Below are positions 51,454 through 64,000 of a DNA stretch of 64,000 bases, piece after piece. How positions within the stretch are numbered: the first letter of the stretch is position 1; each line of letters opens with the position of its first letter. The stretch spans positions 62,001 through 126,000 of the forward strand of contig CACJJR010000001.1 in NCBI GenBank assembly GCA_902593795.1, given 5' to 3'. This DNA comes from an uncultured Candidatus Actinomarina sp. (GTDB lineage Bacteria > Actinomycetota > Acidimicrobiia > Actinomarinales > Actinomarinaceae). Both the position numbers and the translations under genes were made by a program. The notes below the pieces were generated by a model. It was not told the DNA's origin, made no database searches, and saw nothing but the letters and a program-made list of their open reading frames with translations.

Positions 51454-51834
51454 CTATCCACTAAGTTTTTTATATTTCTCTTCTTGGAAGTCTAAGCTAT
51501 TCCAATGTTTTTCTATTATTTCGTCTAGCCCACAAAGATAAAACAAAGGAAACATTAAAGATTCAACTTCTTCAGGAGTACCGCCTTTAAACCTGTATTT
51601 ATAATATTCATATTCTAGAAAGTAATTTAATGTCAATCCGTCTTCAACATGTAAAAGCATTTCATCTTCTAAAATATTGCACTCTAACTTAAGCTGATCT
51701 GTCATTTGCCTATCTGAAAAATTTTCATATTCCGTATAGATATTCTTGTACATTATTGAAGTTTCGGCTTCATAAGTATCGTTATATGATGTACACGAAG
51801 TAAGCAGTATTATTAAAAAAATATACTTTCTCAT
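51454..51834 (-). CDS. Hypothetical lipoprotein at the island edge
   Basis: A 126-aa protein with an N-terminal signal and lipobox ILLTSC (Cys14). The mature part is acidic, Tyr/Glu-rich and probably helical. No family recognised. First gene after the tRNA-Val fragment. Confidence 0.55.
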   Translation of the reverse strand: MRKYIFLIILLTSCTSYNDTYEAETSIMYKNIYTEYENFSDRQMTDQLKLECNILEDEMLLHVEDGLTLNYFLEYEYYKYRFKGGTPEEVESLMFPLFYLCGLDEIIEKHWNSLDFQEEKYKKLSG

Positions 51835-51893: not shown

Positions 51894-52070
51894 TTAGATG
51901 TCTTTTCTATCTAGCTTCATTTCAAGACTAGCAATTAAACCTAATATTTGTGTTCTTCCGTCCCGTGCTGTTATTGTTGCTTCTCTAAACAACTTTGTTC
52001 CATCCTTAGTTTCTCTCTTTAATAGTTCTTGAATAAGCGTTAATGTTTCTATGTTTTTCAAATTTTCCAA
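51894..52070 (-). CDS. Small hypothetical protein (58 aa, TTG start)
   Basis: An open frame of 58 codons starting at TTG 52070 with a strong AAGGAGG site 10 bp upstream (inside the end of the preceding gene). The product is charged and helical at the N-terminus (NIETLTLIQELLKRE), then basic (ATITARDGRTQILGLIASLEMKLDRK). It lies 6 bp after the zinc-ribbon gene at 52077, so it is the third cistron of a small operon. Unknown function. Confidence 0.55.
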   Translation of the reverse strand: MENLKNIETLTLIQELLKRETKDGTKLFREATITARDGRTQILGLIASLEMKLDRKDI

Positions 52071-52076
52071 CTTACC

Positions 52077-52379
52077 TTATCCTCCTTTTGTTTCAATAAC
52101 ATAATTATTTTCTATAAACTGATAAGCATCTAAGCCATATTCATATCCAAAACAGTCCCAGCAATAAAAACCAGTTTCAGGCTCAGCATCTTTTGTCTTA
52201 CACCTTATGCATCCATAGTTATGTTTTGAATCTCTCAAATGACCTTCATCATAGATTTCATTATTACATTGTTTGCAAAAGCTTCTAATCCATGATTCTC
52301 TCCTTCGAGAAGTGTCAAACCAAAGTATTTCAATTAACTTTCTTTGATTTCTTATTTTTTTTATTAATTTAATAATCAT
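52077..52379 (-). CDS. Small zinc-ribbon protein with three CxxC pairs
   Basis: A 100-aa protein: a basic N-terminus (IKLIKKIRNQRK) followed by CKQC, CIRC and CWDC pairs (near residues 35, 57 and 73), enough to bind one or two zinc ions. It might bind nucleic acid. No family is recognised. It overlaps the gene upstream by 11 bp and precedes the 58-aa gene by 6 bp. Confidence 0.55.
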   Translation of the reverse strand: MIIKLIKKIRNQRKLIEILWFDTSRRRESWIRSFCKQCNNEIYDEGHLRDSKHNYGCIRCKTKDAEPETGFYCWDCFGYEYGLDAYQFIENNYVIETKGG

Positions 52380-52587
52380 TTTTATCTCGTTTAATTAGTT
52401 TTGGATCTCCATATATTCTGACAAGAGATATCAATATATTGAATATCTCTTCTTTTTGGTCATTGTCCATGTTTTTGGAATAATAAACAAGATCTAGAAC
52501 TGCTCTCAGCAATCTGTTAATTCTTGGATTGTTTATTTCCCACATAGGGGATTTTTGTATCTCTATTTCTAATAGTTCGTCATGCAT
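52369..52587 (-). CDS. Small helical hypothetical protein
   Basis: A 72-aa mostly helical protein, acidic N-terminus and basic C-terminus. First gene of the three-gene unit 52587-51894, with an AAAGGAG ribosome site upstream. The preceding 197-bp gap (52588-52784) is AT-rich and holds at most a 15-codon frame after the metzincin gene; I see nothing else in it. Confidence 0.5.
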   Translation of the reverse strand: MHDELLEIEIQKSPMWEINNPRINRLLRAVLDLVYYSKNMDNDQKEEIFNILISLVRIYGDPKLIKRDKNDY

Positions 52588-52784: not shown

Positions 52785-54257
52785 TCAACCTCCCTGTAGT
52801 TCAATTAAATAATCATATTCTCCAGGCTTTTGATAACACGCTTCTTTAATATTGTCTTCATAATATGAAACACGTTCTTCTGAAAGGTCCAATTGATTTA
52901 TTACCTGACTTCTGTAAATATAAGCTGATTTGCTATTTGTATAGTTAATAGTTTTAAGTTCTGGGTGATATAAGATATGAAGTTGCATTAAATCTACATG
53001 ACTAAAATAAGGCACTTGTGGGCCAGAAAATTCATAAGTCATAACTGAGTCCCAACAAAGATTGTGAGATAAACCTAAAGCATGACCGAGTTCATGAATA
53101 AGAACATGCGATCGCTTATCTCCTCTTAGGCTTGCATCAACCCAAATAAAATCTTGCCATTTATATACTCCGATATATTCGTCTATACAACCAATATGTC
53201 TGCCGCGCTCATTGTCACAATCAGTAATATGGATTGGTAAGGTGACATGTTTTGTTTCACTTGAATATGAAATATCTAGTCCTGGAGCAACTATATGTAA
53301 GACTTGTAATGCATTTTTAATAAGTTCTAAATCAGACTTACGTACATCCCCATAAAGACCTACTACAGTTTTTTGATTTCTAATTCTTTTAAAGCTTATA
53401 TCGTGATCCACCCATTTATAGTCTCCATTTACATTCGGAGAATATTCTAAGTCTTTTCCTAGTAGTGCTAAAGATGCTTCGTTAGTCGTAAGGTTAAATC
53501 CAGATAGTCTAAGAATTTGATAGTCAATGAATTTTTCAATATAAGCGTCCTCTTCATTAGATTGAACTTTTATATTGTCGATATCATATGATGGAAGAAT
53601 ACCTTCAGCAAAAAATGGTTCTATGTTTTCAAAGTCTTTAAATTTCTCAACTGGAATGGTATAAACATTCTCTTCTTTACAATTAACTAAATCCGAACCA
53701 TTGGCACTTGTAGCTTCTAAATTTACATTTAGAGGATAAGGCTTCTCTAAAGATTCAAAATTTGATTTGTATAATGGGAGTGTAACCTTTGCAACTTCTT
53801 CTGTAAATGGTATTCGGGTTTTTGAAAAGTTATGATATTCAAAACCCTTGGTTGCTATGTTCCAATCATCTGCCACAGGAGAATGAGGTTCAATAGCCAG
53901 ATAAAGGTTTCTTATCTTGTAATCTCTGTAATCTAAATTATTAAAATCAATAACAAATTCAAGTGTCTCGAGATCTACCTCATAATCTATTTTCTCCCAA
54001 AATTCAGAGCTATCACATTCCATATCAAGGGTAACAACACCCATTTTTTTAGCAGTCTCACTTTTGATCATGAATTTTACGCCATTTTTTTCATGGATAA
54101 CGTATCCAGGTAACAAAACGGAGCTCTCCTGTGATTCCAATCTTTCAATTACGTTATTGATTGTTGTACTTACCTGATCAACTGCAAATAGTCCCCAGCT
54201 TCCAATCCACATTGTTGCAGCTAAATATACATACAGGGGCTTAAGCATTTTTTTCAA
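52785..54257 (-). CDS. Exported metzincin-type metalloprotease
   Basis: A 490-aa protein with an N-terminal signal-anchor (about 6-26), a beta-rich middle region (about 50-300) and a C-terminal catalytic domain. HELGHALGLSH (388-398) is the full HExxHxxGxxH zinc site of metzincins (matrixin-like), and SVMTYEF (about 404-410) supplies the Met-turn. YFSHVDLMQLHILYHP fits the closing helix. The protease should act outside the cytoplasm. It overlaps the SGNH hydrolase gene by 17 bp and ends the 57.7-52.8 kb operon. Confidence 0.8.
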   Translation of the reverse strand: MKKMLKPLYVYLAATMWIGSWGLFAVDQVSTTINNVIERLESQESSVLLPGYVIHEKNGVKFMIKSETAKKMGVVTLDMECDSSEFWEKIDYEVDLETLEFVIDFNNLDYRDYKIRNLYLAIEPHSPVADDWNIATKGFEYHNFSKTRIPFTEEVAKVTLPLYKSNFESLEKPYPLNVNLEATSANGSDLVNCKEENVYTIPVEKFKDFENIEPFFAEGILPSYDIDNIKVQSNEEDAYIEKFIDYQILRLSGFNLTTNEASLALLGKDLEYSPNVNGDYKWVDHDISFKRIRNQKTVVGLYGDVRKSDLELIKNALQVLHIVAPGLDISYSSETKHVTLPIHITDCDNERGRHIGCIDEYIGVYKWQDFIWVDASLRGDKRSHVLIHELGHALGLSHNLCWDSVMTYEFSGPQVPYFSHVDLMQLHILYHPELKTINYTNSKSAYIYRSQVINQLDLSEERVSYYEDNIKEACYQKPGEYDYLIELQGG

Positions 54258-54939
54258 ACCAATGATAAATTGCTTTTGCTAGTTTTCCTCCACCAATGTG
54301 TGATGGCTCAATTGGGTTTGCGTAATCTTCAGGTCTAACAAAAATATCTCTTAGTTCTAATACATCAGCACCGTATTTATTTGCAGTTCTATATACGATG
54401 TCATTGAAAATTGAGACCATTGTTTTTGATGAATTGTTCACATCACTGAACTCATCCGAATCAACCAAATCTCCTTCATATACAGTGCATAGAAGAAGAT
54501 TCGCCCTGTGGTTAGATAAGTTTGCAACAATGGTCTCATACTGCTTTTTAAATGGTTTAATTATTTCTAAATAAGTTTCCTCGAATACTTTATTTCTTGA
54601 TGGGTTAAGTTCTTTAACTCCCCATTTTCCAATCATGGCTCCTTTACCCATGACTTTTGATAGCTTGCTCGTAGTTTGTAAAAAAGAAATATTATATAAA
54701 AGATCGTTGCCACCGATAGATACAACAATATTTGTTGCGTCTGAAAATAAATTTGAATCTAGATGATTTCTTTCAAGATCGTACATTGTGTCACCATCAA
54801 CTGCGTGGTTTTCAATAGCTATGTTTGGATCTTCGGAAAATAGTCTTTTTAAATGTTCTGTCACATCTAGTTCATTACTCAAAACATAAGATTTATTATC
54901 TATGATCGAGTCACCAAGTAATATTATTTTTTTGGTCAT
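54241..54939 (-). CDS. SGNH/GDSL-family hydrolase
   Basis: A 232-aa protein from ATG 54939 (MTKKIILLGDS); a start at 54969 adds ten residues without a motif. Block I LGDSIID carries nucleophile Ser11, the oxyanion GGND is at residues 76-79 and the final PSHIGG near residue 218 gives the catalytic His. No signal peptide is visible, so it is cytosolic. SGNH enzymes remove acyl groups from lipids, sugars or proteins. Sandwiched between VWA and metzincin genes. Confidence 0.85.
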   Translation of the reverse strand: MTKKIILLGDSIIDNKSYVLSNELDVTEHLKRLFSEDPNIAIENHAVDGDTMYDLERNHLDSNLFSDATNIVVSIGGNDLLYNISFLQTTSKLSKVMGKGAMIGKWGVKELNPSRNKVFEETYLEIIKPFKKQYETIVANLSNHRANLLLCTVYEGDLVDSDEFSDVNNSSKTMVSIFNDIVYRTANKYGADVLELRDIFVRPEDYANPIEPSHIGGGKLAKAIYHWFEKNA

Positions 54940-55024
54940 TAAGCAGCCCATCCGGATATTCTTTTCCATTTTCTGAAATGCTTTTTAACTGTGTCTTGCC
55001 ATATTTCTTTAAGTCTTTTTATCA

Positions 55025-55690
55025 TTACTCTTCCTCTTCTCTTTTAAACATTTTTTTATTACTAAGCTTTCTTTCGTTTTCATAAAATCCAATCAGCTTT
55101 GAATTTGTGCCTTTTGAGAAATCATCAACAGTTCTTGAAACAGATTTAAATGCATCTATCGAATCTTCTTTTGCATAGTGAAGTGACTTTTCATACTGAA
55201 ATCCAAATCTTTCACTTTGGAGTATTGCATCATGATCCGCCCCTAAATATATGACTAACCATCCCTGTTCTGTTTTTTCTTCGATAAGAGCTTTAACTGC
55301 TTTTGAATCATATTCTCTTGAAGCATTCTCCAATCCATCAGTAACAATTACTAGGACTTTTTTTTCATTTTCTTTTATGCGGTAATTATCAAGTTCGTTG
55401 ATTGCTAAACCAATCGCATCTAGTAAAGGTGTGCTTCCTCTTGGTTGTAAAAAGTCATAATTTAATTTTTCTACTTTTGATACTGGTATGGAATTTATAG
55501 GCACATCTATGGATCTGTTATCAAACAAGCTTATTGTTAGAGCACCATCTACACTGTTTTTTCTTTGCTCCTCTAGAAAAGAATTGATTGAATCAATAGT
55601 AATCTCCCTACACGAAGCCATAGACCCTGATCGATCAAGAACCAATCTAATATTTAGAAACTCTTTTATATTTAAATTTTTTTTGCTCAT
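55025..55690 (-). CDS. VWA-domain protein with intact MIDAS
   Basis: A 221-aa cytosolic von Willebrand A domain. LVLDRSGSMAS (DxSxS, residues 17-25), RGSTPLLDAI (MIDAS Thr) and VIVTDGLEN (MIDAS Asp) form a complete metal site for binding a partner carboxylate. The C-terminal tail (about 185-221) is charged and probably disordered. Similar small VWA proteins occur in Ter-type and conflict loci. It overlaps the next gene upstream by one base. Confidence 0.85.
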   Translation of the reverse strand: MSKKNLNIKEFLNIRLVLDRSGSMASCREITIDSINSFLEEQRKNSVDGALTISLFDNRSIDVPINSIPVSKVEKLNYDFLQPRGSTPLLDAIGLAINELDNYRIKENEKKVLVIVTDGLENASREYDSKAVKALIEEKTEQGWLVIYLGADHDAILQSERFGFQYEKSLHYAKEDSIDAFKSVSRTVDDFSKGTNSKLIGFYENERKLSNKKMFKREEEE

Positions 55691-56223
55691 TAAAATGGTG
55701 GTTCCTCTCCTGGTTCTTCCATTCGATCAATCTGTTCTTGACGAATTGATCTAGCTGTTTCATTTAAAAACTTATCAACCTCTAAAGACAGAACGAATTC
55801 CAACTCATTTTCAGGATTTGTTTCATTTAAAATAGAGCTAGAGCTTAAATTATTTCTATAATCCATAATCCGAGAAACCATCTCAGCTTTTGGCTCAACT
55901 CTCCTTATAAAGTTTTTAAATTTTCCTAAATAGTCTCTTCCAGACAATCGGTACATATTTTTCTCAGCAACAATAACTTTTATCAGTGCGTCATTAAATT
56001 TATCAATCTGATCTTGGTTGTAGCCAAGAAGAGAGTAAGTAAAGCCTATTCTCCAAGCAAAAGGACTAGTCTCATAAAAGAGCATTTTGTCAATTAAAGA
56101 TGGTCTAATTGATTTTTTACGAAATACCTGTCTAGATCGCTTGATGACAACCCTTAAAAGAGCAAGTGAGAATATAAACATCCCAATTACACATACTGTT
56201 AAAACAATTTGTAATATATTCAT
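55690..56223 (-). CDS. Membrane-anchored hypothetical protein
   Basis: A 177-aa protein with one N-terminal transmembrane helix (about 5-27), a basic juxtamembrane stretch (KRSRQVFRKK) and a cytosolic helical domain with an acidic Pro-rich end (EEPGEEPPF). No family is recognised. It shares one base with each neighbour, tying it to the VWA protein; it could tether the VWA protein to the membrane. Confidence 0.55.
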   Translation of the reverse strand: MNILQIVLTVCVIGMFIFSLALLRVVIKRSRQVFRKKSIRPSLIDKMLFYETSPFAWRIGFTYSLLGYNQDQIDKFNDALIKVIVAEKNMYRLSGRDYLGKFKNFIRRVEPKAEMVSRIMDYRNNLSSSSILNETNPENELEFVLSLEVDKFLNETARSIRQEQIDRMEEPGEEPPF

Positions 56224-56705
56224 TACGCATTCTCCATTTCTATTTTTTGAACTTTTTCGTTTTTAAGTAAGTAAAATTCAACCTCTGGAGTTTTATTAGT
56301 AAGGAATTTGGTATCGCTATCAACTGTTGTGCCTGGCCAATTGATTAAGACTCCATACTTCGTTTTCCTTAGATCGCTATCTGTATTGAGCTGTGAAGAA
56401 AGTAGATATCTTGAGAGTTGTGTTCTCGCACTGTCATTGAGACATTGGAGGCTCTTAGTTTCAATAATAAAGTTTGGAAGTTTTTTATCATTAACAAAAA
56501 AATCTAACCTGGCAAGGCCTACTGAGTTCTTCTTGTAAAAAATTTCGAAACTCATTTCTTTCAAGTAATTTATTTCGTATTTTCTTAACTCAATAGCTAA
56601 AGCGTTTTGATAAACATCTTCAGCAAAACCAGCACCAAGCTCTTTGTGAATGCTGTTAACTATTTTTGTAATCAATTTAGCAAATAATTTAAATTTACTT
56701 TCCAT
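56223..56705 (-). CDS. GxxExxY-family (PD-(D/E)XK-like) protein
   Basis: A 160-aa protein with ELGAGFAEDVYQNAL near residue 22, the GxxExxY signature, followed by LARLDFFVNDK and IIETKSLQCL, which match the D...ExK core of the PD-(D/E)XK fold. These small proteins are common in mobile regions and are predicted nucleases or remnants. It overlaps the genes on both sides. Confidence 0.8.
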   Translation of the reverse strand: MESKFKLFAKLITKIVNSIHKELGAGFAEDVYQNALAIELRKYEINYLKEMSFEIFYKKNSVGLARLDFFVNDKKLPNFIIETKSLQCLNDSARTQLSRYLLSSQLNTDSDLRKTKYGVLINWPGTTVDSDTKFLTNKTPEVEFYLLKNEKVQKIEMENA

Positions 56706-57081
56706 ATCTTCTTCCCTTTCTGTTTCTTCTTATAAAATTGTTGTGTTTTTGAAACTGTGAATAGGCCACACTAACGTTCGGGAAAAGTTTTTCTCCACAC
56801 GGTGAACACCATATGCCATTGTGCTTTGACCAATATCCGTAAGTCTTAGGTCCTAATTCTTCTTTGCATCCGTTACAGTCTGATCCATACTGCAGTGTTA
56901 GAAAAAATAATTGATAACAAGCTGTGTGGCGCCAGAAATTATAATTATGATCAAAAAATGGAGAGATTAGCTCTCCTTTGTAATAATCTTTTCCACAGAC
57001 CTTACATGTACCATCGTATTTCGAATATATTGGACTATCTGGAACTAGTCTCTGATAGCTTTTTGCAAATGTTTTTAACAT
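56695..57081 (-). CDS. Zinc-finger protein, two CxxC clusters
   Basis: A 128-aa protein from ATG 57081, which overlaps the NYN stop as TAATG; a longer frame to 57111 would overlap more. The N-terminal finger is CKVC...FWRHTAC (a C2HC arrangement resembling PARP-like fingers) and the second is CNGC...CSPC. The C-terminus is very basic (RRNRKGRRYGK), suggesting nucleic-acid binding. It may direct the neighbouring nuclease-like proteins to RNA or DNA; this is an inference. Confidence 0.6.
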   Translation of the reverse strand: MLKTFAKSYQRLVPDSPIYSKYDGTCKVCGKDYYKGELISPFFDHNYNFWRHTACYQLFFLTLQYGSDCNGCKEELGPKTYGYWSKHNGIWCSPCGEKLFPNVSVAYSQFQKHNNFIRRNRKGRRYGK

Positions 57082-57641
57082 TAAACCAGTGCTCCTACTT
57101 TTGAGGTCCACTTAAAAATCTTGTTATTATTTTCTGATTTATTAAATTCGTATGTTGTTTTTTGACATGGAATTTTCTTTAGCTTGTCGCTAAGTCCGTG
57201 CTGTGTTGAAACTATTTCTATTGATTTTCCAAGCTTTAAAGCTTTGTTGCAAAGGTTTAAGAAATAATGGTCTCCTGATGCTATAACTATGTGGTCAAAA
57301 TCTTCAAGCAATTCAGCGGCTTTTTCATTTAGAATCTTGTCAGCACCATCTTTACCTGGACGTACAAAAATTTCTAAATTAGACCCGATAGCAAGGTTTG
57401 AGAATTTTGAAAATAAATCAGAACTGGTTATATCACTATTCCATTGATCGAGGTCTTGATCATAAGCCCATGCAGTTAATGTAGGTAAAAATAATTCAGG
57501 GTTTGAGGCAATTAATACATAATCATTGGTAGAAATTTCTACTAAAGACTGATAAATGTTCTTTGATTCGTTAAATAAACCAACATTATCAATAGGACCA
57601 CCTAATACATTCTCAACATCTATTACATGTAAAGTTTTCAT
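57081..57641 (-). CDS. NYN-domain ribonuclease-like protein
   Basis: A 186-aa PIN-like NYN protein. Acidic catalytic positions are visible in VIDVEN (Asp8), PGKDGADKILNE near residue 94 and IASGDHYFLNL near residue 120. NYN proteins cut RNA using metal ions. The start is preceded by GGGAGG inside the upstream 32-aa ORF. First large gene of the minus-strand operon. Confidence 0.82.
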   Translation of the reverse strand: MKTLHVIDVENVLGGPIDNVGLFNESKNIYQSLVEISTNDYVLIASNPELFLPTLTAWAYDQDLDQWNSDITSSDLFSKFSNLAIGSNLEIFVRPGKDGADKILNEKAAELLEDFDHIVIASGDHYFLNLCNKALKLGKSIEIVSTQHGLSDKLKKIPCQKTTYEFNKSENNNKIFKWTSKVGALV

Positions 57642-57644
57642 AAC

Positions 57645-57743
57645 TTACACCACCTCCCAGATAAACCCGACTGGTCTTCTATACCAGACTCCGATAAACT
57701 GTAGGGTGTTTTCGTTTACTCCTAGTTCGTAATCGTTATACAT
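57645..57743 (-). CDS. Leader peptide-sized ORF (32 aa) before the NYN gene
   Basis: An ATG at 57743 is preceded by a near-perfect AGGAGG site, spaced by AAA. The 32-codon frame ends 3 bp before the NYN start and its last codons contain the NYN ribosome site, so translation is coupled. The peptide is aromatic-rich with an acidic N-terminus and WYRRPVGFIWEVV at the end. It may be a regulatory leader, a small antitoxin-like protein or a membrane-active peptide. Confidence 0.55.
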   Translation of the reverse strand: MYNDYELGVNENTLQFIGVWYRRPVGFIWEVV

Positions 57744-57853
57744 TTTCCTCCTATACTTTATTAACTTTATAATGTATGTAATAAATATAACAGGTATGCA
57801 AAATACTGCAAGTATTCTTTATAATTTTTATAATGTATTAATTTGAAGGAGTT
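57744..57853 (-). promoter_or_regulatory. Promoter/operator region of the NYN-metzincin operon
   Basis: On the minus strand TTGCAG (57806-57811) and TATATT (57784-57789) are 16 bp apart and fit -35/-10 boxes. The -35 overlaps an inverted repeat AATACT-3-AGTATT (57802-57816). A direct repeat, TTTATAATGTAT, occurs on the plus strand at 57766-57777 and 57827-57838, one on each side. The arrangement suggests a bound regulator. All by eye. Confidence 0.4.
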
Positions 57854-58942
57854 TTAGTTGTTTTCTATTGTTCTCAAAACTTCTCTGCCAACAGCTTCTA
57901 CTACATGTGGCACAACTGCATTCCCTAATTGTCTGAATGCTTGAGAATCAGATACTACAAATATCTCATCTGTGTTGTCGTATCGGTTCTCAATTTGGTT
58001 AAATCCCATAAGTCTTAAGGCCTCTAGAGGTGTCAATCGTCGAGGGTTCTTATTCTTTTGTTCTATTAATATCTCTGCACCATCTTTAAAGTATCTTTTT
58101 GTCAATGTACGAGATGGTCCTTCTCTATCAACGATTGAATAGCCGAAGCCTTTTTTTTGACCTTTTGGCATATTTCTATTTCTCTCTCTTATAGTTTGAA
58201 GAGAGTTCCATGTACCATCTTTTAGTGTGTATTTTTCTTTTACTCTCTTCTGTAAAATACTTCCAATTTTTAGTTCTGTTATAGGTTCAGTTGGAAAACT
58301 GAAGAAATCAACTTTATTTGTATCAAACTGCTTCTTATCAAAACCAGCTATAAAAACTCTTCTTCTGTGTTGTGGCACCCAGTGGACTGCATCTATTACT
58401 TTAAAATGAATATCATATTGAGCTTTTTTCAATTCTTCTTGAATAACTTCCCAAGTATTTCCTTTATCGTGAGAAAGGAGCCCTCTGACGTTTTCAAGTA
58501 TGATAGCTTTTGGTCTTTTTCTTTTTATTATTTTTAACAATCCATTAAATACTTGCCCTTGGTCTCCACCCTCTTTTTGGTCTGTATATTGAAATCCAGA
58601 CTTCTTTTTTTGGTTCTCTGGTTTTGTTTTATCCCAGTGTTTATTGGAGACAACTCCTGCAACAGAAAATGGTTGGCAAGGAAACCCAGCAGTTAATATA
58701 TCATGGTCAGGAATATCGCTAGATTTATAATCAAATAGATTTCCTTCAGAATCTTCACTAAACCAGTGTTTATATGTCTGAATTGCATATTTGTCTATTT
58801 CTGAAGATAAAACTACTTTTCCACCTATAGCTTCAAGACCAAGCCTAAATCCTCCAATTCCTGAACAGAATTCAGTGACTGTAAAACTAGATTTTGGTTT
58901 ATATGTCTCTTTATCGAAAATGCTAGTTTGGGTATTACTCAT
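57854..58942 (-). CDS. DNA (cytosine-5-)-methyltransferase
   Basis: A 362-aa m5C methyltransferase. Motif I FCSGIGGFRLGLE (residues 25-37) binds AdoMet, motif IV GFPCQPFS contains catalytic Cys89, motif VI ENVRG is near residue 150, motif VIII QHRRRVF near residue 190, motif IX RRLTPLEALRLMGF near residue 303 and motif X QLGNAVVPHV near residue 338. The target-recognition region between VIII and IX is short. It is the last gene of the Z1 system block and presumably protects host DNA. Confidence 0.96.
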   Translation of the reverse strand: MSNTQTSIFDKETYKPKSSFTVTEFCSGIGGFRLGLEAIGGKVVLSSEIDKYAIQTYKHWFSEDSEGNLFDYKSSDIPDHDILTAGFPCQPFSVAGVVSNKHWDKTKPENQKKKSGFQYTDQKEGGDQGQVFNGLLKIIKRKRPKAIILENVRGLLSHDKGNTWEVIQEELKKAQYDIHFKVIDAVHWVPQHRRRVFIAGFDKKQFDTNKVDFFSFPTEPITELKIGSILQKRVKEKYTLKDGTWNSLQTIRERNRNMPKGQKKGFGYSIVDREGPSRTLTKRYFKDGAEILIEQKNKNPRRLTPLEALRLMGFNQIENRYDNTDEIFVVSDSQAFRQLGNAVVPHVVEAVGREVLRTIENN

Positions 58943-58970: not shown

Positions 58971-60452
58971 CTAACAACTAGGACATTTTCCATTAATGAG
59001 TTCTGTATCCATTACTGTGATGCCGCAATCATTGCAATTAGTCCATCCCGATCCTCTTTTGGAGCTTTGTGGGTCTTCAGTTTTTTTGGATAAATATTTT
59101 ATTGCATTGATTAAAGAAGAGCTTTTATATTGATCTACAACCTGAAAGCCCTGTACGATAAAATTTTCTTTGTAACCTAAGTTTAAATTTATAAATGATT
59201 GAGGTAAATCTACTGAAATAGGTTCATCCACTGTATATATGTACTTATACGCCTTACCATTATTGTTCTTTTCCCATAAGTAAGAGCCAAGTTTTTCATT
59301 GATAAATTTTTTAGTTAATGTACAAGCGGCAAATGCTTTTTTATTCGCAAAGAATAACACTAAAGCTCCTTCTTCTAATTTTTCCCATGTTTTCTTTGGA
59401 ACATTAACTATCCCCCAAAATCCGTGATACGGGCTTATTTCAAGTAGTTCCTTATGTTCATTTTTTGTTAAATATTTTTTCAAATCATTTATATCAAGTT
59501 GTCCAACTATGGAATAATTAAAATTTTCTTGTGCAGTTTTATTTGAACATGGTTGGAGTACAACTTGTTTGTAATTTTCTAGATCCAGTTCTTCATCTTC
59601 TTCTTGTAGCAATTCATTCTTTACAAGTAGATCCAAGTTTTGATAGGTTAGTAAAAGATTGTCTTTTAAGCTGCAATCATACCTACTAATCAAGAACCCA
59701 ATAACTTTATTCATAGTTTCAGTAAAGCTAGGCGTTTGCTCTACAGCCCAAGAATAAAGTTCATCGAACTCTTTAATACTAAAAATTCTGTCGTAAGCTT
59801 TTCTGTATGGAGATTCCATATATCTTAAATGATTACTACCTGAAAACTCACCGTGATTTAAGATTGAGTTTTGAAATGTATCATAATTGTCTCTAAGCCA
59901 AAAAGCAGCTTTCCAAATGTCTTTAAGCCAAACAGACCTTGCTTTTCCCGACGAATTGTATGTTTTTAACCTACCGTCGTCATAGACAGTTTTGTATTGT
60001 TGTTTAACATTATTTAGAAAATTTGTAAATCTATGTTCATCAAATAAAGTTTCAAAAACAGTACTTGGATTTTCTTCATCTAGCCAAACTGAAAAATCGT
60101 CTAAATCCATAGAAGCAAAATTTGGAGATGAGAAATTTGCCTCCTCTCCGGTTATATTCTTATATGCTACCGGCCCATCTTTGTCTATATTTCCTGTTGC
60201 TTTTTTTCCTATGTAGTTTTCATATAGCTTTAAACCTGTTTTGCTTAAAGGTCTCAAACCAGTCGAAATTTCAGGTGGATTAAAAGTAGACTCAATATTA
60301 ATTAAGTACAACCTTAATGATGAGAGGGAATGTCCCGTCTCTGTTTTTATAGTTAAAAGATACTCTACAGGAACTTCAGGAGTGTAGTTTGACTGTTTAA
60401 ACAGCCACAAAAGAGCGACTATTTCGTCATCAGAATATCTTATCCTACTCAT
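58971..60452 (-). CDS. PUA/EVE-like protein with C-terminal zinc ribbon, in a Z1 system
   Basis: A 493-aa protein. The N-terminus (RYSDDEIVALLWLF; GLRPLSKTGLKLYENY near residue 66) resembles the helical N-terminal domain seen on some HNH restriction enzymes. Residues about 345-445 (FWGIVNVPKKTWEKL, GALVLFFANKKAFAACTL) look like a PUA/EVE-type module, a fold that reads modified bases. CNDC and CPSC at the end form a zinc ribbon. No nuclease motif is clear in the middle. It overlaps the Z1 gene by 8 bp. It stands where AIPR or other effectors often sit in such loci. Confidence 0.6.
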   Translation of the reverse strand: MSRIRYSDDEIVALLWLFKQSNYTPEVPVEYLLTIKTETGHSLSSLRLYLINIESTFNPPEISTGLRPLSKTGLKLYENYIGKKATGNIDKDGPVAYKNITGEEANFSSPNFASMDLDDFSVWLDEENPSTVFETLFDEHRFTNFLNNVKQQYKTVYDDGRLKTYNSSGKARSVWLKDIWKAAFWLRDNYDTFQNSILNHGEFSGSNHLRYMESPYRKAYDRIFSIKEFDELYSWAVEQTPSFTETMNKVIGFLISRYDCSLKDNLLLTYQNLDLLVKNELLQEEDEELDLENYKQVVLQPCSNKTAQENFNYSIVGQLDINDLKKYLTKNEHKELLEISPYHGFWGIVNVPKKTWEKLEEGALVLFFANKKAFAACTLTKKFINEKLGSYLWEKNNNGKAYKYIYTVDEPISVDLPQSFINLNLGYKENFIVQGFQVVDQYKSSSLINAIKYLSKKTEDPQSSKRGSGWTNCNDCGITVMDTELINGKCPSC

Positions 60453-63426
60453 AAGAAATTTGATTTCTTGGAATTAGTTTAATTTCTTTTCTACAGGTAT
60501 TGTTTGGAAGTCTAATAATCCAACCAAAACTTGGTTCACCTTTTGGATCTTGCTTATTATCTATCAGGTATCCGTGTATTGTTGCTGTTCTTTTTTGCTG
60601 TTCAAGTTTCAAAGCTTTATTTCCTACTCCTCTTTCGGTGCTTAAAGAATTGTTCATTATATAATTTACAAACTTGGAATCCATTCCACTCTCTAAGGAT
60701 TTCCAACCTTGGGGCGTATTAGGGCTACGAGCTACTACAGTAAAATCATAGTTTTCATGATTGTGTCTTCGAAATTTATTTTCTAACTGTGATGCACCAT
60801 TATTTATAATCAATTTCCAGTTGTCAATCCCTGGTTCACATGTGTGACTTGGAACATAGTGGATGCTAGATGTTTTTGATTTAGGACATTTTAAATTACC
60901 CTCTAAAAACCACCTTAGGACTTTTGTTGGATTCTCTACACTCCACTTGAATTCAGAAAGATACTTATGAATAAGTTCATTTTCAACATCTGCTATCCAG
61001 AATTCTCTTATTGTTTTTCCAAGTTTAAATTCCTTTTTTTGTAAATCTATATTATCTATCAAGGAAATAAAATTTTTAAAGTTTTCTTTATCTTGTTTAG
61101 TGCCTTGGGAAGGAAATGATTGCGATTTATCAAATGGCTTACCTCCTCCAAAATTTTCTGAAACTAATCCTATATTCCTCATTTTTTGAGCTGCAGTTGG
61201 TGGGACTCTACCTTCCTGAATTACATATATTGCTAAATCTAAAGGAGATGTATTTCTCAAAAATCTTTGTTCTTTTGATTCTGGTAAATTACTTAATAAT
61301 TCTCTAAGTCCAAATTCAGTTTTACAAATATCTACAAAATCCTCATACAAATCTCTAGTGTTGTCACGTGCATCTCTTGCAAAAAATACTCTTACTAAAT
61401 CTTTGTAATTATTCCTATAGCCAAACCATCTAGCCATCTGCTCAAGAGTGTCTCCAGCTGTAACTACTCTTGTGAAATAAGATATTGTCAAATCAGGAAT
61501 AGTGTATCCTCTTGAAAGCATATTTCCACCGGTAAGTACCTTCCAAACTCCGGGTTCGCCGGGATTCTTGTTGAAAGAAGGGGTAGGGTTTGACTGATTT
61601 ATTAGAATGTAAATATTATCGCTATTTTCATCTGGTGGCTGCTCTATTAAATCTCTTGCTACATATATATATTTTTTTATCTCGTTAAAATCACTTGGCA
61701 ATTTTAATTCAGTATTATAGGGTTCAATAAGCTCATTCGTTTTTTTAAAATCTTCCTCGTATAACTTTTTTAATCGAACTAAACCAGCACCTGTGTAATC
61801 GCTATTGTCCCAAACTCCTTGAACTTTTTCAGCCATATCTTCTTGATCTTGATTTTTATGTGAAGTGTGAACCAACATTGTGTGGTGTGGAAATACATCG
61901 CCATAATTAACATTCATTTGTTTTTCTCGATAAAGTTTTATAGCACCTGACAAAAGAAAAGCATCCAAAGCATTTTGGATTGAATTTTCCTCATCAGATA
62001 CTAGGACATCTCTTACATATAATGAAAAATCTTCGTGTGGAAATTTTTCTTCAAGATTTGTTGATATGAAGTCTTTAGGGCCCATATAATCGTCAGGAGC
62101 ATCCAAAAGAGTAATAAAATCTTTTGGAAACAAGTCATCTTTATCGTCTGAAGTCACAAATACATTAGCGTAGGGCGTTGCTGTATAAGCAACATATTGT
62201 GCTCTAGGAAGAAGCTTAATTAAATTTCTAATTTCTAAATTTGTTGCTTGAAGGTCTTCTTCGTCCCTTAAACCGTCTTCATTAAATTCTGTATAAGGAG
62301 TCACCGATGCAGAATCTGCTTCATCATCAATAATTAAAACCGGCATATGTTTAAGTGAAGTTGTTCCTGCTTTCTTTAATAATTTAATTATTTTTTTTAT
62401 AGATCCAGTAGTTTTATTAATAGCAACAAAGTGTGCTGGAACATTTTTTAAATCTTCATAATTATTTTCACCTTGAAAAGAAAATGGAGAGAAAGGCATT
62501 CGGCCAGTTGGTAATCCATTATCTGTATAATCAGTGACTCTTTGTACTAAAACACCGTCTGTAGTTGAACTTGGACGAAAACCATGAGAAACAAAAGTAC
62601 TAGTAGGGTCCTCGTATGGAACTCTGAAAGTTGGATCATCAAAATAATCTTTATCCATGCTTTCATCAAAAGAAACGTTTGCCCAATCTACTATATCTGG
62701 ATGAATTATTTCTCTACCAAAAATATCTTGATCAAATCTTTTTTGTGTCTGGCGTCTTAATATAGTATTTCTTCCAGTGAGAATAATTATTACTTTATAA
62801 CCACAGTCAATTGCTTTTGAAACAAGTCCTTCCATATGTAGGGTTTTTCCACTTTGCACGTGTCCAATCACAAGACCCTTTGTTTGATAAGGCTTAGAAG
62901 TTACTGGAGGTTCTAAATAATCAAGGACTGCATTAGAAGATTCATCAAGCTCTTTAAGAATTTTATGTTTTTTCGGATTGTGTTTTAATTTTTTATCAAG
63001 AAGGTGTCTTTTAAGTGTGTTCCAATAATGAAAATTGGATTCAACATCTTTAAGCCACGGCTTTGATGGATTATCACTAAATACTTGTATATGCTCAGGT
63101 TCACCAAATTTAATTAACAAATTTAAAGTATCAATAACTTGTGGTGGGAGTTCTAATGTTTCATTTATTTTATTTCTTCTTTCTTCTGAATTTTTTGGGA
63201 AACCATCGAGCGATTCATTATCTTCCCAGAGAAAATCTGTATAAATCTTTCTAAATGACTGGAGAATATCTTGATTTTGATTTTCTATTTCTGTATATAA
63301 ATCACCTAAATTTAAATCAAAGTCTTTATCTATAATTTTGTGAGACTGGATAAGCAAAGAAAGTGAAACAAGTGGTCCTTGAGAAGGTTTTTTAATTATT
63401 TTGTCTAATTTTTCTTTTATATTCAT
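60445..63426 (-). CDS. Z1-domain helicase-like ATPase
   Basis: A 993-aa protein of the Z1 family (superfamily 2-like). Walker A GHVQSGKT is at residues 188-195, Walker B DDEAD at 367-371, TATPYAN at 415-421 and the Z1 signature GGNMLSRGYTIPDLTISYF with QMARWFGYR and DLVRVFFA in the 640-700 region. Z1 proteins occur with methyltransferases, GHKL ATPases and PD-(D/E)XK proteins in restriction-like conflict systems, as here. The start shares one base with the DUF4420 stop. Confidence 0.92.
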   Translation of the reverse strand: MNIKEKLDKIIKKPSQGPLVSLSLLIQSHKIIDKDFDLNLGDLYTEIENQNQDILQSFRKIYTDFLWEDNESLDGFPKNSEERRNKINETLELPPQVIDTLNLLIKFGEPEHIQVFSDNPSKPWLKDVESNFHYWNTLKRHLLDKKLKHNPKKHKILKELDESSNAVLDYLEPPVTSKPYQTKGLVIGHVQSGKTLHMEGLVSKAIDCGYKVIIILTGRNTILRRQTQKRFDQDIFGREIIHPDIVDWANVSFDESMDKDYFDDPTFRVPYEDPTSTFVSHGFRPSSTTDGVLVQRVTDYTDNGLPTGRMPFSPFSFQGENNYEDLKNVPAHFVAINKTTGSIKKIIKLLKKAGTTSLKHMPVLIIDDEADSASVTPYTEFNEDGLRDEEDLQATNLEIRNLIKLLPRAQYVAYTATPYANVFVTSDDKDDLFPKDFITLLDAPDDYMGPKDFISTNLEEKFPHEDFSLYVRDVLVSDEENSIQNALDAFLLSGAIKLYREKQMNVNYGDVFPHHTMLVHTSHKNQDQEDMAEKVQGVWDNSDYTGAGLVRLKKLYEEDFKKTNELIEPYNTELKLPSDFNEIKKYIYVARDLIEQPPDENSDNIYILINQSNPTPSFNKNPGEPGVWKVLTGGNMLSRGYTIPDLTISYFTRVVTAGDTLEQMARWFGYRNNYKDLVRVFFARDARDNTRDLYEDFVDICKTEFGLRELLSNLPESKEQRFLRNTSPLDLAIYVIQEGRVPPTAAQKMRNIGLVSENFGGGKPFDKSQSFPSQGTKQDKENFKNFISLIDNIDLQKKEFKLGKTIREFWIADVENELIHKYLSEFKWSVENPTKVLRWFLEGNLKCPKSKTSSIHYVPSHTCEPGIDNWKLIINNGASQLENKFRRHNHENYDFTVVARSPNTPQGWKSLESGMDSKFVNYIMNNSLSTERGVGNKALKLEQQKRTATIHGYLIDNKQDPKGEPSFGWIIRLPNNTCRKEIKLIPRNQISYE

Positions 63427-64000
63427 TAAGTTTTTTTAGTATTAATTACTTCTTGAAATTCTTGGGATCTACAAGGTACTCCTGTATTCAGACCACTTAA
63501 ATTTAATTTATATGAAATGTCTGAAATGTTATCAGAAAAATTTAAAGCTTCGTATTCCTCTTTTTTAAATTTTGGAAAATTTTGATCAACGTAGAAACTC
63601 AAAGGATCATTATTTGAAGAAAAGACGTATTCCTGAGTCATTGACTTAGCTTGACTAAAGTCATCAGATAAATAACCTTCAACTTTAACAATAAAAGCAT
63701 CCAAAACATCTTTTGAACTGATGCTGTTTTCAATTCCATCTATAAGTTTTGAAACACTCATTGAGCTAGCTAGATTTTGAACTGGTGAAACTTGGATTGA
63801 AATTAAAAATAAATCAGAATCATTACTAGGTTCTAGTTGTTCTATTGAAGAAATTACATGTTCTCTTTTTGTATTTTTTGTTGTTTTAATCTCAAACTCA
63901 TTATTTTCTAATCTAAAATCATGCCGGTCATGTTCTGGTCCTCTCCAGTCATATACTGACTCTTCACCATTTATTTTGACTAGATATTCTAAAAACCATA
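63426..64000 (-). CDS. PD-(D/E)XK nuclease of the DUF4420 type (5' end beyond window)
   Basis: The frame stays open from the stop at 63426 to the window edge, so at least 191 codons are present; an internal ATG at 63761 is not the start. The upstream part reads GPEHDRHDF then NEFEIKTTKN, the D...ExK catalytic core, followed by HVISSIEQLEPSNDSDLFLI, and the C-terminal part (GYLSDDF...FPKF, SDISYKLNLSGL) is typical for DUF4420. It is the likely endonuclease subunit of the Z1 system. Partial because of the window end. Confidence 0.85.
   Translation of the reverse strand, partial: WFLEYLVKINGEESVYDWRGPEHDRHDFRLENNEFEIKTTKNTKREHVISSIEQLEPSNDSDLFLISIQVSPVQNLASSMSVSKLIDGIENSISSKDVLDAFIVKVEGYLSDDFSQAKSMTQEYVFSSNNDPLSFYVDQNFPKFKKEEYEALNFSDNISDISYKLNLSGLNTGVPCRSQEFQEVINTKKT

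What the first reader, a model, noticed from the sequence alone, without database searches (positions are those of the whole stretch)
52785..57743. Undescribed operon: small peptide, NYN RNase, zinc finger, GxxExxY, membrane protein, VWA, SGNH hydrolase, exported metzincin
Most junctions in this eight-gene run overlap by 1-17 bp or are only a few bases apart, so the genes were kept together. Only the VWA-SGNH junction has a larger gap. The set mixes RNA cleavage, a metal-dependent adaptor (VWA), a membrane tether, an acyl hydrolase and a secreted protease. I know no named system with this combination. Its place in an island next to a Z1 system makes a defence or interbacterial role plausible. 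A cell-surface maturation role is the alternative.
Basis: inference. Interest (0 to 1): 0.72.

Follow-up and report, generated by a model that had tools for sequence, protein, structure and literature searches.

The report
NrtR-linked surface-protease cassette in defence island
In tiny ocean bacteria (Candidatus Actinomarina) the tail of the reported gene run, an SGNH hydrolase followed by an exported metalloprotease, recurs at several chromosomal hotspots beside an ADP-ribose-sensor-type regulator and antiphage genes, which suggests (but does not prove) that the protease is switched on when NAD+ is broken down during infection; the front half of the run was found in this one genome only.

Summary
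The gene run is real, and tighter than reported: with corrected starts, five junctions are TAATG overlaps, and the apparent VWA-SGNH gap holds a 28-aa ORF coupled on both sides. It is not one conserved eight-gene system. The head (32-aa ORF, NYN, zinc finger, GxxExxY, membrane protein) was found with these neighbours in no other genome searched. The tail is a real module: full-length metzincin relatives occur in 12 of 41 Actinomarina genomes (two more have longer versions) and in no other of 296 class genomes, with SGNH directly upstream in seven other loci. All ten NrtR-type Nudix-wHTH hits in the 41 genomes lie at metzincin loci. The cassettes sit at three or more hotspots among restriction-modification, TIR, DarT1-NADAR, DarG or ADP-ribosylglycohydrolase genes. 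Here the NrtR-like gene lies just outside the window, divergent from a MORC/TIR-DUF4420/Z1/methylase operon; its intergenic region shares with the NYN promoter region an 18-bp motif with no other exact site in the genome. Most likely mechanism: ADP-ribose released during infection derepresses the cassette, and the protease is exported. Linkage to the regulator is well supported; ligand, trigger and protease target are inferred.

The parts
57645..57743 (-). 32-aa ORF (pep32), first gene of the run, with a strong Shine-Dalgarno (AGGAGG)
57766..57783 (+). putative operator TTTATAATGTATGTAATA upstream of pep32; the only other exact site of the motif (TTTATAATGTATGTWATA) in the genome is in the NrtR-like Nudix/MORC-ATPase intergenic region (66352-66369, outside the window)
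   Evidence: 17 of 18 identical between the two intergenic regions; 0 of 400 shuffles reach 17
57081..57641 (-). NYN-domain (PIN-like) RNase; acidic motifs DxEN, GADKxL, SGDH kept
56695..57081 (-). Zinc-finger protein (CxxC...WxHxxC plus CxxC...CxxC), start corrected to the ATG in TAATG; no relative found beyond very weak segments
56223..56705 (-). GxxExxY protein (PDDEXK_3)
55690..56223 (-). membrane protein with one N-terminal hydrophobic segment, no known family, no relative in the other 295 class genomes
55025..55690 (-). VWA protein (DxSxS MIDAS motif); relatives 56% and 49% identical in G007 (beside SGNH) and G006 (same island as a metzincin, Nudix and TIR); family also in many phages and plasmids
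54939..55025 (-). 28-aa cationic ORF (pep28) that fills the supposed VWA-SGNH gap, TAATG on both sides
54241..54939 (-). SGNH/GDSL hydrolase without an evident signal peptide (GDSIIDN, SIGGND, EPSH kept in all relatives)
52785..54257 (-). exported metzincin: N-terminal hydrophobic segment, six invariant cysteines, HExGHALGLxHN plus Met-turn
52369..52587 (-). 72-aa protein recurring near other metzincin genes (72% identical in G012)
51894..52379 (-). two small proteins (100-aa Cys-rich and 58-aa) with relatives downstream of the long metzincin in G017; left end of the island
57854..58942 (-). C5 DNA methyltransferase, last gene of the upstream MORC/TIR-DUF4420/Z1 operon
58971..60452 (-). 493-aa protein of unknown family in the Z1 operon
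60445..63426 (-). Z1 domain helicase-like ATPase (partial similarity to MzaC)
63426..64000 (-). C-terminal part of a TIR-DUF4420 (PD-DExK) protein; the gene runs on to 64826 outside the window (L041)

Best explanation
The run is a composite operon in a mobile defence island. Its tail (VWA, SGNH, exported metzincin) is a local form of a recurring Actinomarina cassette whose usual form is: divergent NrtR-type Nudix-wHTH regulator, 77-aa Cys-rich protein, SGNH, metzincin. Its head (32-aa ORF, NYN RNase, zinc finger, GxxExxY, membrane protein) is a strain-specific insert under the same promoter. Proposed working: the NrtR-type repressor keeps the cassette off. When TIR NADases or DarT-type ADP-ribosyltransferases in the same islands act during infection, ADP-ribose or a relative binds the Nudix domain and the repressor leaves its operators. 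In this strain the RNase and accessory proteins act inside the cell, while the cysteine-rich metzincin is exported to cut surface or extracellular proteins (for example phage receptors on the envelope). Shown: operon structure, recurrence, exclusive NrtR-metzincin linkage, operator-like repeats, intact active-site motifs. Inferred: repression, ADP-ribose as ligand, infection as trigger, surface proteins as substrate.
For: SGNH directly upstream of the metzincin in 7 other loci. Metzincin in 14 of 41 genomes (12 full-length, two long versions) and in no genome of the class outside the genus. All 10 NrtR_WHD hits lie at metzincin loci, 0 in the 27 genomes without metzincin (Fisher 9e-7, lineages not fully independent). 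Same cassettes at three or more hotspots (trhO-lysA; rdgB/RNase PH region; kinase/PP2C region), so linkage is not inherited position. Regulator-operon intergenic regions carry TWGTR-N5-YACWA dyads about 31 bp apart (three in L051, L083, L088; two in L050), and two TACTY-N5-RAGTA dyads in L089; shuffles reach this in 0 to 2 of 500. In this genome the NrtR-like gene's promoter and the NYN operon's promoter region share an 18-bp motif with no other exact site in 1.07 Mb. NAD/ADP-ribose enzymes next to the regulator or in the same island: TIR in L085, L087, L089 and here; DarT1 plus NADAR in L050; DarG in L051; ADP-ribosylglycohydrolase in L083. Literature: NrtR is a repressor released by ADP-ribose, and an NAD-depleting toxin derepresses its regulon in Pseudomonas (PMC11535050); Nudix-HTH regulators with vWA proteins are predicted parts of ADP-ribose conflict systems (PMC9503650).
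Against: The window genome's own Nudix protein scores below Pfam's cut-off for the NrtR winged helix (E 5e-4, 0.001). No promoter or expression data exist. The shared motif was seen first and tested afterwards, and it differs from the dyads of the other cassettes. Four metzincin loci have no NrtR_WHD hit (L049, L086, L087, L092), and in L049, L084, L086, L088, L090, L091 and L092 no ADP-ribose enzyme was identified among the genes examined. NrtR relatives can sense sugars (BtAraR), so ADP-ribose is not assured. Island gene content alone does not prove a defence role.
Confidence: 0.42

Rival explanations
1. Hotspot hitch-hiking: defence islands collect unrelated genes, and the NYN head, VWA, SGNH and metzincin share an operon only because of insertion history, with no joint function.
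For: Head genes occur in this genome only; NYN relatives in the class have other neighbours, some next to type I restriction-modification genes; VWA relatives have many different neighbours in plasmids.
Against: Five TAATG couplings; SGNH-metzincin order kept in eight loci at different hotspots; exclusive NrtR-metzincin linkage.
Confidence: 0.25
2. Cell-surface maturation or nutrient cassette: the metzincin and SGNH remodel or digest envelope or external proteins and esters, and the NrtR-type regulator senses a sugar or the NAD state, with no link to infection.
For: Exported protease with invariant cysteines, weak similarity to the bacterial protease myroilysin; the NrtR family includes the arabinose regulator BtAraR (PMC4666351, abstract) and the cassette regulators also hit AraR_C weakly.
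Against: Placement in flexible islands beside restriction-modification, TIR and DarT1-NADAR genes; patchy presence in 14 of 41 genomes; SGNH and VWA lack evident signal peptides.
Confidence: 0.2
3. The head alone is a separate RNA-cleaving defence or toxin cassette (32-aa leader or antitoxin, NYN RNase, zinc-finger adaptor, GxxExxY nuclease-fold protein, membrane tether) that inserted into the SGNH-metzincin cassette.
For: Own promoter region after the methylase (110 bp gap); intact NYN acidic motifs; related NYN genes sit next to restriction-modification genes elsewhere in the class.
Against: No second copy of the head found; translational coupling runs through into VWA, pep28 and SGNH.
Confidence: 0.3

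Closest known systems
NrtR family of Nudix-wHTH transcription regulators
   Same: Nudix plus NrtR_WHD domains, divergent from the operon, operator-like dyads in the intergenic region
   Different: Known members control NAD or sugar metabolism genes; here the linked genes are SGNH and an exported metzincin within defence islands
Predicted Nudix- or WYL-regulated ADP-ribosylglycohydrolase conflict systems with vWA (PMC9503650)
   Same: Nudix-HTH sensor regulator, ADP-ribose enzymes nearby (ARG in L083, DarT1-NADAR in L050, DarG in L051, TIR in others), vWA protein in three loci
   Different: No ARG-phosphatase core here; instead SGNH plus exported metzincin, and the NYN head
MORC/paraMORC restriction-modification systems with an SFII helicase (PMC2292703) and MZA
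   Same: The upstream operon has a GHKL ATPase, Z1 helicase, RE-fold DUF4420 protein and C5 methylase; TIR association is also described
   Different: The run under study is downstream, with its own promoter region; MzaB and MzaC similarity is partial
Myroilysin and bacterial M12A/M10 metzincins
   Same: Zinc-binding motif region, weak profile match
   Different: About 360 residues of N-terminal sequence without any match, N-terminal hydrophobic segment, six invariant cysteines

Membership tests
NrtR-type regulator (cassettes in general) | Nudix domain plus NrtR winged helix above curated cut-offs | tested here: met
   nine genomes over the cut-off
NrtR-type regulator (window genome's Nudix, 66380-67555) | NrtR winged helix above the curated cut-off | tested here: inconclusive
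   19.5-20.6 bits against a cut-off of 27; aligns with the other cassette Nudix proteins
NrtR-type regulator | Release from DNA by ADP-ribose | not testable with these tools
   needs purified protein; operator-like dyads
Metzincin metalloprotease | HExxHxxGxxH and Met-turn | tested here: met
   the zinc motif is invariant in 12 of 12; the Met-turn methionine is kept in 11 of 12
SGNH hydrolase | GDS, GxND and acid-x-x-H blocks | tested here: met
   the catalytic acid position is Glu (EPSH)
NYN RNase | NYN domain with conserved acidic residues | tested here: met
   RNase activity not tested
MZA system | full-length Mza proteins above model cut-offs | tested here: not met
   MzaC 233 bits against 1500; MzaB 89 bits; only a GHKL ATPase and a Z1 protein match
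ARG-centred Nudix-regulated conflict system (PMC9503650) | ADP-ribosylglycohydrolase in the operon | tested here: inconclusive
   none seen among the island's larger genes, all but a few small ORFs scanned; present in L083

The most novel reading that the evidence does not exclude
An infection-inducible, two-compartment immune cassette: NAD+ breakdown by TIR or DarT enzymes yields ADP-ribose, which an NrtR-type repressor reads to switch on an exported metzincin with its SGNH and VWA partners, so that an intracellular alarm is turned into remodelling of the cell surface, with exchangeable intracellular effectors such as the NYN head.
Probability: 0.25. Interest if true: 0.85.

Novelty: new variant of a known kind. 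Interest (0 to 1): 0.57.

Why it matters
Most known antiphage effectors act inside the cell (general knowledge). A protease cassette exported under an ADP-ribose-sensing regulator would link NAD-based immunity to the cell surface in a highly streamlined marine bacterial group, in which the published genome survey (PMC7771536) reports only envelope-sugar, transport and restriction-modification islands. It also gives testable operators and a clear regulator-target pair.

Tried and rejected
Single-sequence and two-sequence AlphaFold models of the zinc finger and the metzincin were of very low confidence (pLDDT 37-38) and were not used for fold searches. Viral-contig scans with NYN, ZnF, the membrane protein and single-sequence metzincin found nothing; the metzincin profile found only catalytic-region matches there; SGNH relatives in viral contigs are mostly 28-31% identical and their neighbours were not examined. 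NYN in phages, and ZnF, metzincin and the membrane protein in plasmids, found nothing. VWA neighbourhoods in plasmids were read for shared partners and gave none. MZA membership was considered and rejected. The idea that the VWA-SGNH gap marks an operon break was rejected (28-aa ORF).
Full report
What was checked. The window is G000:C1:62001-126000 of a 1.07 Mb Candidatus Actinomarina-type genome (a same-genus relative is named). All eight reported genes are there on the minus strand and their domain calls hold. Three starts or gaps needed correction: ZnF at 57081, SGNH at 54939, and a 28-aa ORF in the VWA-SGNH gap. After that, NYN-ZnF, GxxExxY-TM, TM-VWA, VWA-pep28 and pep28-SGNH are all TAATG overlaps, and the other junctions overlap by 11 to 17 bp or lie 3 bp apart. 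A 110 bp gap separates the run from the methylase upstream, and a 197 bp gap separates it from the small genes downstream.

Where it sits. The nearest relative (G024, 93% identical at the neighbouring trhO gene) keeps the lipoprotein gene 51454-51834 (98%) and then goes straight to the lysA-like gene, so everything from about 51.9 to 69.3 kb is a flexible island. Reading past the window edge (L041), the island holds, in the same direction and upstream of the run, a GHKL/MORC-like ATPase (66315-64819), a TIR-DUF4420 protein (64826-63426; the TIR part is read from its N-terminal sequence and its BLAST grouping with the TIR proteins, the DUF4420 part, below cut-off), Z1 (63426-60445), a 493-aa protein and the C5 methylase. 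Divergent from that operon lies a Nudix protein with a weak NrtR winged helix (ORF from 66362, likely start 66380), followed by a TIR protein (67594-69003). The upstream operon is of the MORC restriction-modification kind described in PMC2292703.

What recurs. Full-length relatives of the metzincin, 29-66% identical, occur in 12 of 41 genomes of the genus including this one, and longer versions in two more; none was found in the other class genomes. SGNH lies directly upstream in L050, L051, L083, L084, L088, L090 and L091 (there before a long metzincin) besides the window; in L088 a short ORF lies between. In these seven loci the order is: divergent NrtR-type Nudix gene, 77-aa Cys-rich gene, in three loci a 469-487-aa gene, SGNH, metzincin. 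A second form (L085, L087, L089) has Nudix, TIR, a membrane protein and the metzincin. The cassettes lie at the trhO-lysA site (L049, L050, L051, L085, window), at a site beside rdgB and RNase PH genes (L086, L087, L088, L091, L092), and at a site beside kinase and PP2C genes (L089, also L093); these three site names are read from the protein sequences. So the linkage is not inherited position. The VWA gene has two relatives in the genus: in G007 it is adjacent to SGNH, and in G006 it lies about 5 kb from a metzincin in the same island. The head genes do not recur: ZnF and the membrane protein have no relative in the other class genomes, and ZnF has only two very weak segments in 397 phylum genomes; NYN has distant relatives (about 22-30%) with other neighbours.

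The regulator. A search for the NrtR winged helix in the 41 genomes gave ten matches, each at a metzincin locus, and none in the 27 genomes without metzincin (Fisher 9e-7; some loci are close relatives, so the effective number is smaller). Four metzincin loci have no such match. The intergenic regions between regulator and cassette carry three dyads TWGTR-N5-YACWA at 31-32 bp spacing in L051, L083 and L088 and two in L050, and two TACTY-N5-RAGTA dyads in L089. In the window genome the regulator's intergenic region and the region upstream of pep32 share TTTATAATGTATGTWATA, which has exactly two exact sites in the genome, with 17 of 18 bases alike against a shuffle maximum of 16 in 400 trials. 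The motif was found by eye first, so this is suggestive only. Most regulators of the seven-locus form have lost catalytic glutamates of the Nudix box (RIFVNETG or RKFVEETG), as expected of a sensor, while the window genome's protein keeps RELVEE.

The ADP-ribose theme. In L050 the regulator overlaps a DarT gene, followed by a DarT1-associated NADAR antitoxin; in L051 it overlaps a DarG-like macro gene; L083 has an ADP-ribosylglycohydrolase 0.9 kb after the metzincin; L085, L087, L089 and the window's island have TIR proteins. In L084, L088, L090 and L091 the genes tested next to the regulator were of other kinds (Schlafen AlbA_2, DUF488, helicases), and L049, L086 and L092 showed none among the genes examined. 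PMC9503650 predicts Nudix-HTH regulators and vWA proteins as parts of ADP-ribose conflict systems, and PMC11535050 shows an NAD-depleting toxin derepressing an NrtR regulon.

Mechanism. Shown: operon, recurrence, regulator linkage, operator-like repeats, intact catalytic motifs, features of export (hydrophobic N-terminus, six invariant cysteines). Inferred: the NrtR-type protein represses the cassette, ADP-ribose or a relative lifts it, infection is the usual source, and the exported metzincin acts on surface proteins. The role of SGNH is open; it has no evident signal peptide, so it probably acts inside the cell or at the inner face of the membrane.

Limits. No metagenome scan was available, the single GTDB scan went to the metzincin, and the head genes were therefore tested only in the class, a phylum sample (ZnF), phages (NYN), plasmids (ZnF and the membrane protein) and viral contigs. 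Structure models were too poor to use. Cassette genomes are of one genus and partly closely related.

Noticed in passing
L050:9634-11931: NrtR-type Nudix gene overlapping a DarT gene followed by a DarT1-associated NADAR antitoxin: a Nudix-linked DarT1-NADAR operon in Actinomarina.
   Followed up: partly
L051:8849-10491: NrtR-type Nudix gene overlapping a DarG-like macro-domain gene by 4 bp.
   Followed up: partly
L041:2380-5003 (66380-69003 in window numbering): NrtR-like Nudix and TIR gene at the right end of the island, divergent from the MORC/TIR-DUF4420/Z1/methylase operon.
   Followed up: yes
L091:7205-9643 and L092:1301-3886: Long (812 and 861 aa) metzincin versions; the L091 protein also has a DUF3298 match.
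   Followed up: no
L019, L021, L024: Small NYN proteins (RTLHLVDIENLMGGP type) directly upstream of HTH-like proteins and, in L019 and L024, genes that look like type I restriction-modification genes, in other genomes of the class.
   Followed up: partly
L093:8216-11110: SGNH and VWA genes side by side next to an integrase-like gene, without metzincin.
   Followed up: no
L050:7860-9323, L051:7172-8608, L090:3345-4754: 469-487-aa family between the 77-aa Cys-rich gene and SGNH; the L050 protein has no Pfam or PADLOC match.
   Followed up: no
window 55025-55690: The VWA family matches phrog_7371 and has relatives in 215 phage records, many of Streptomyces and Microbacterium phages.
   Followed up: no
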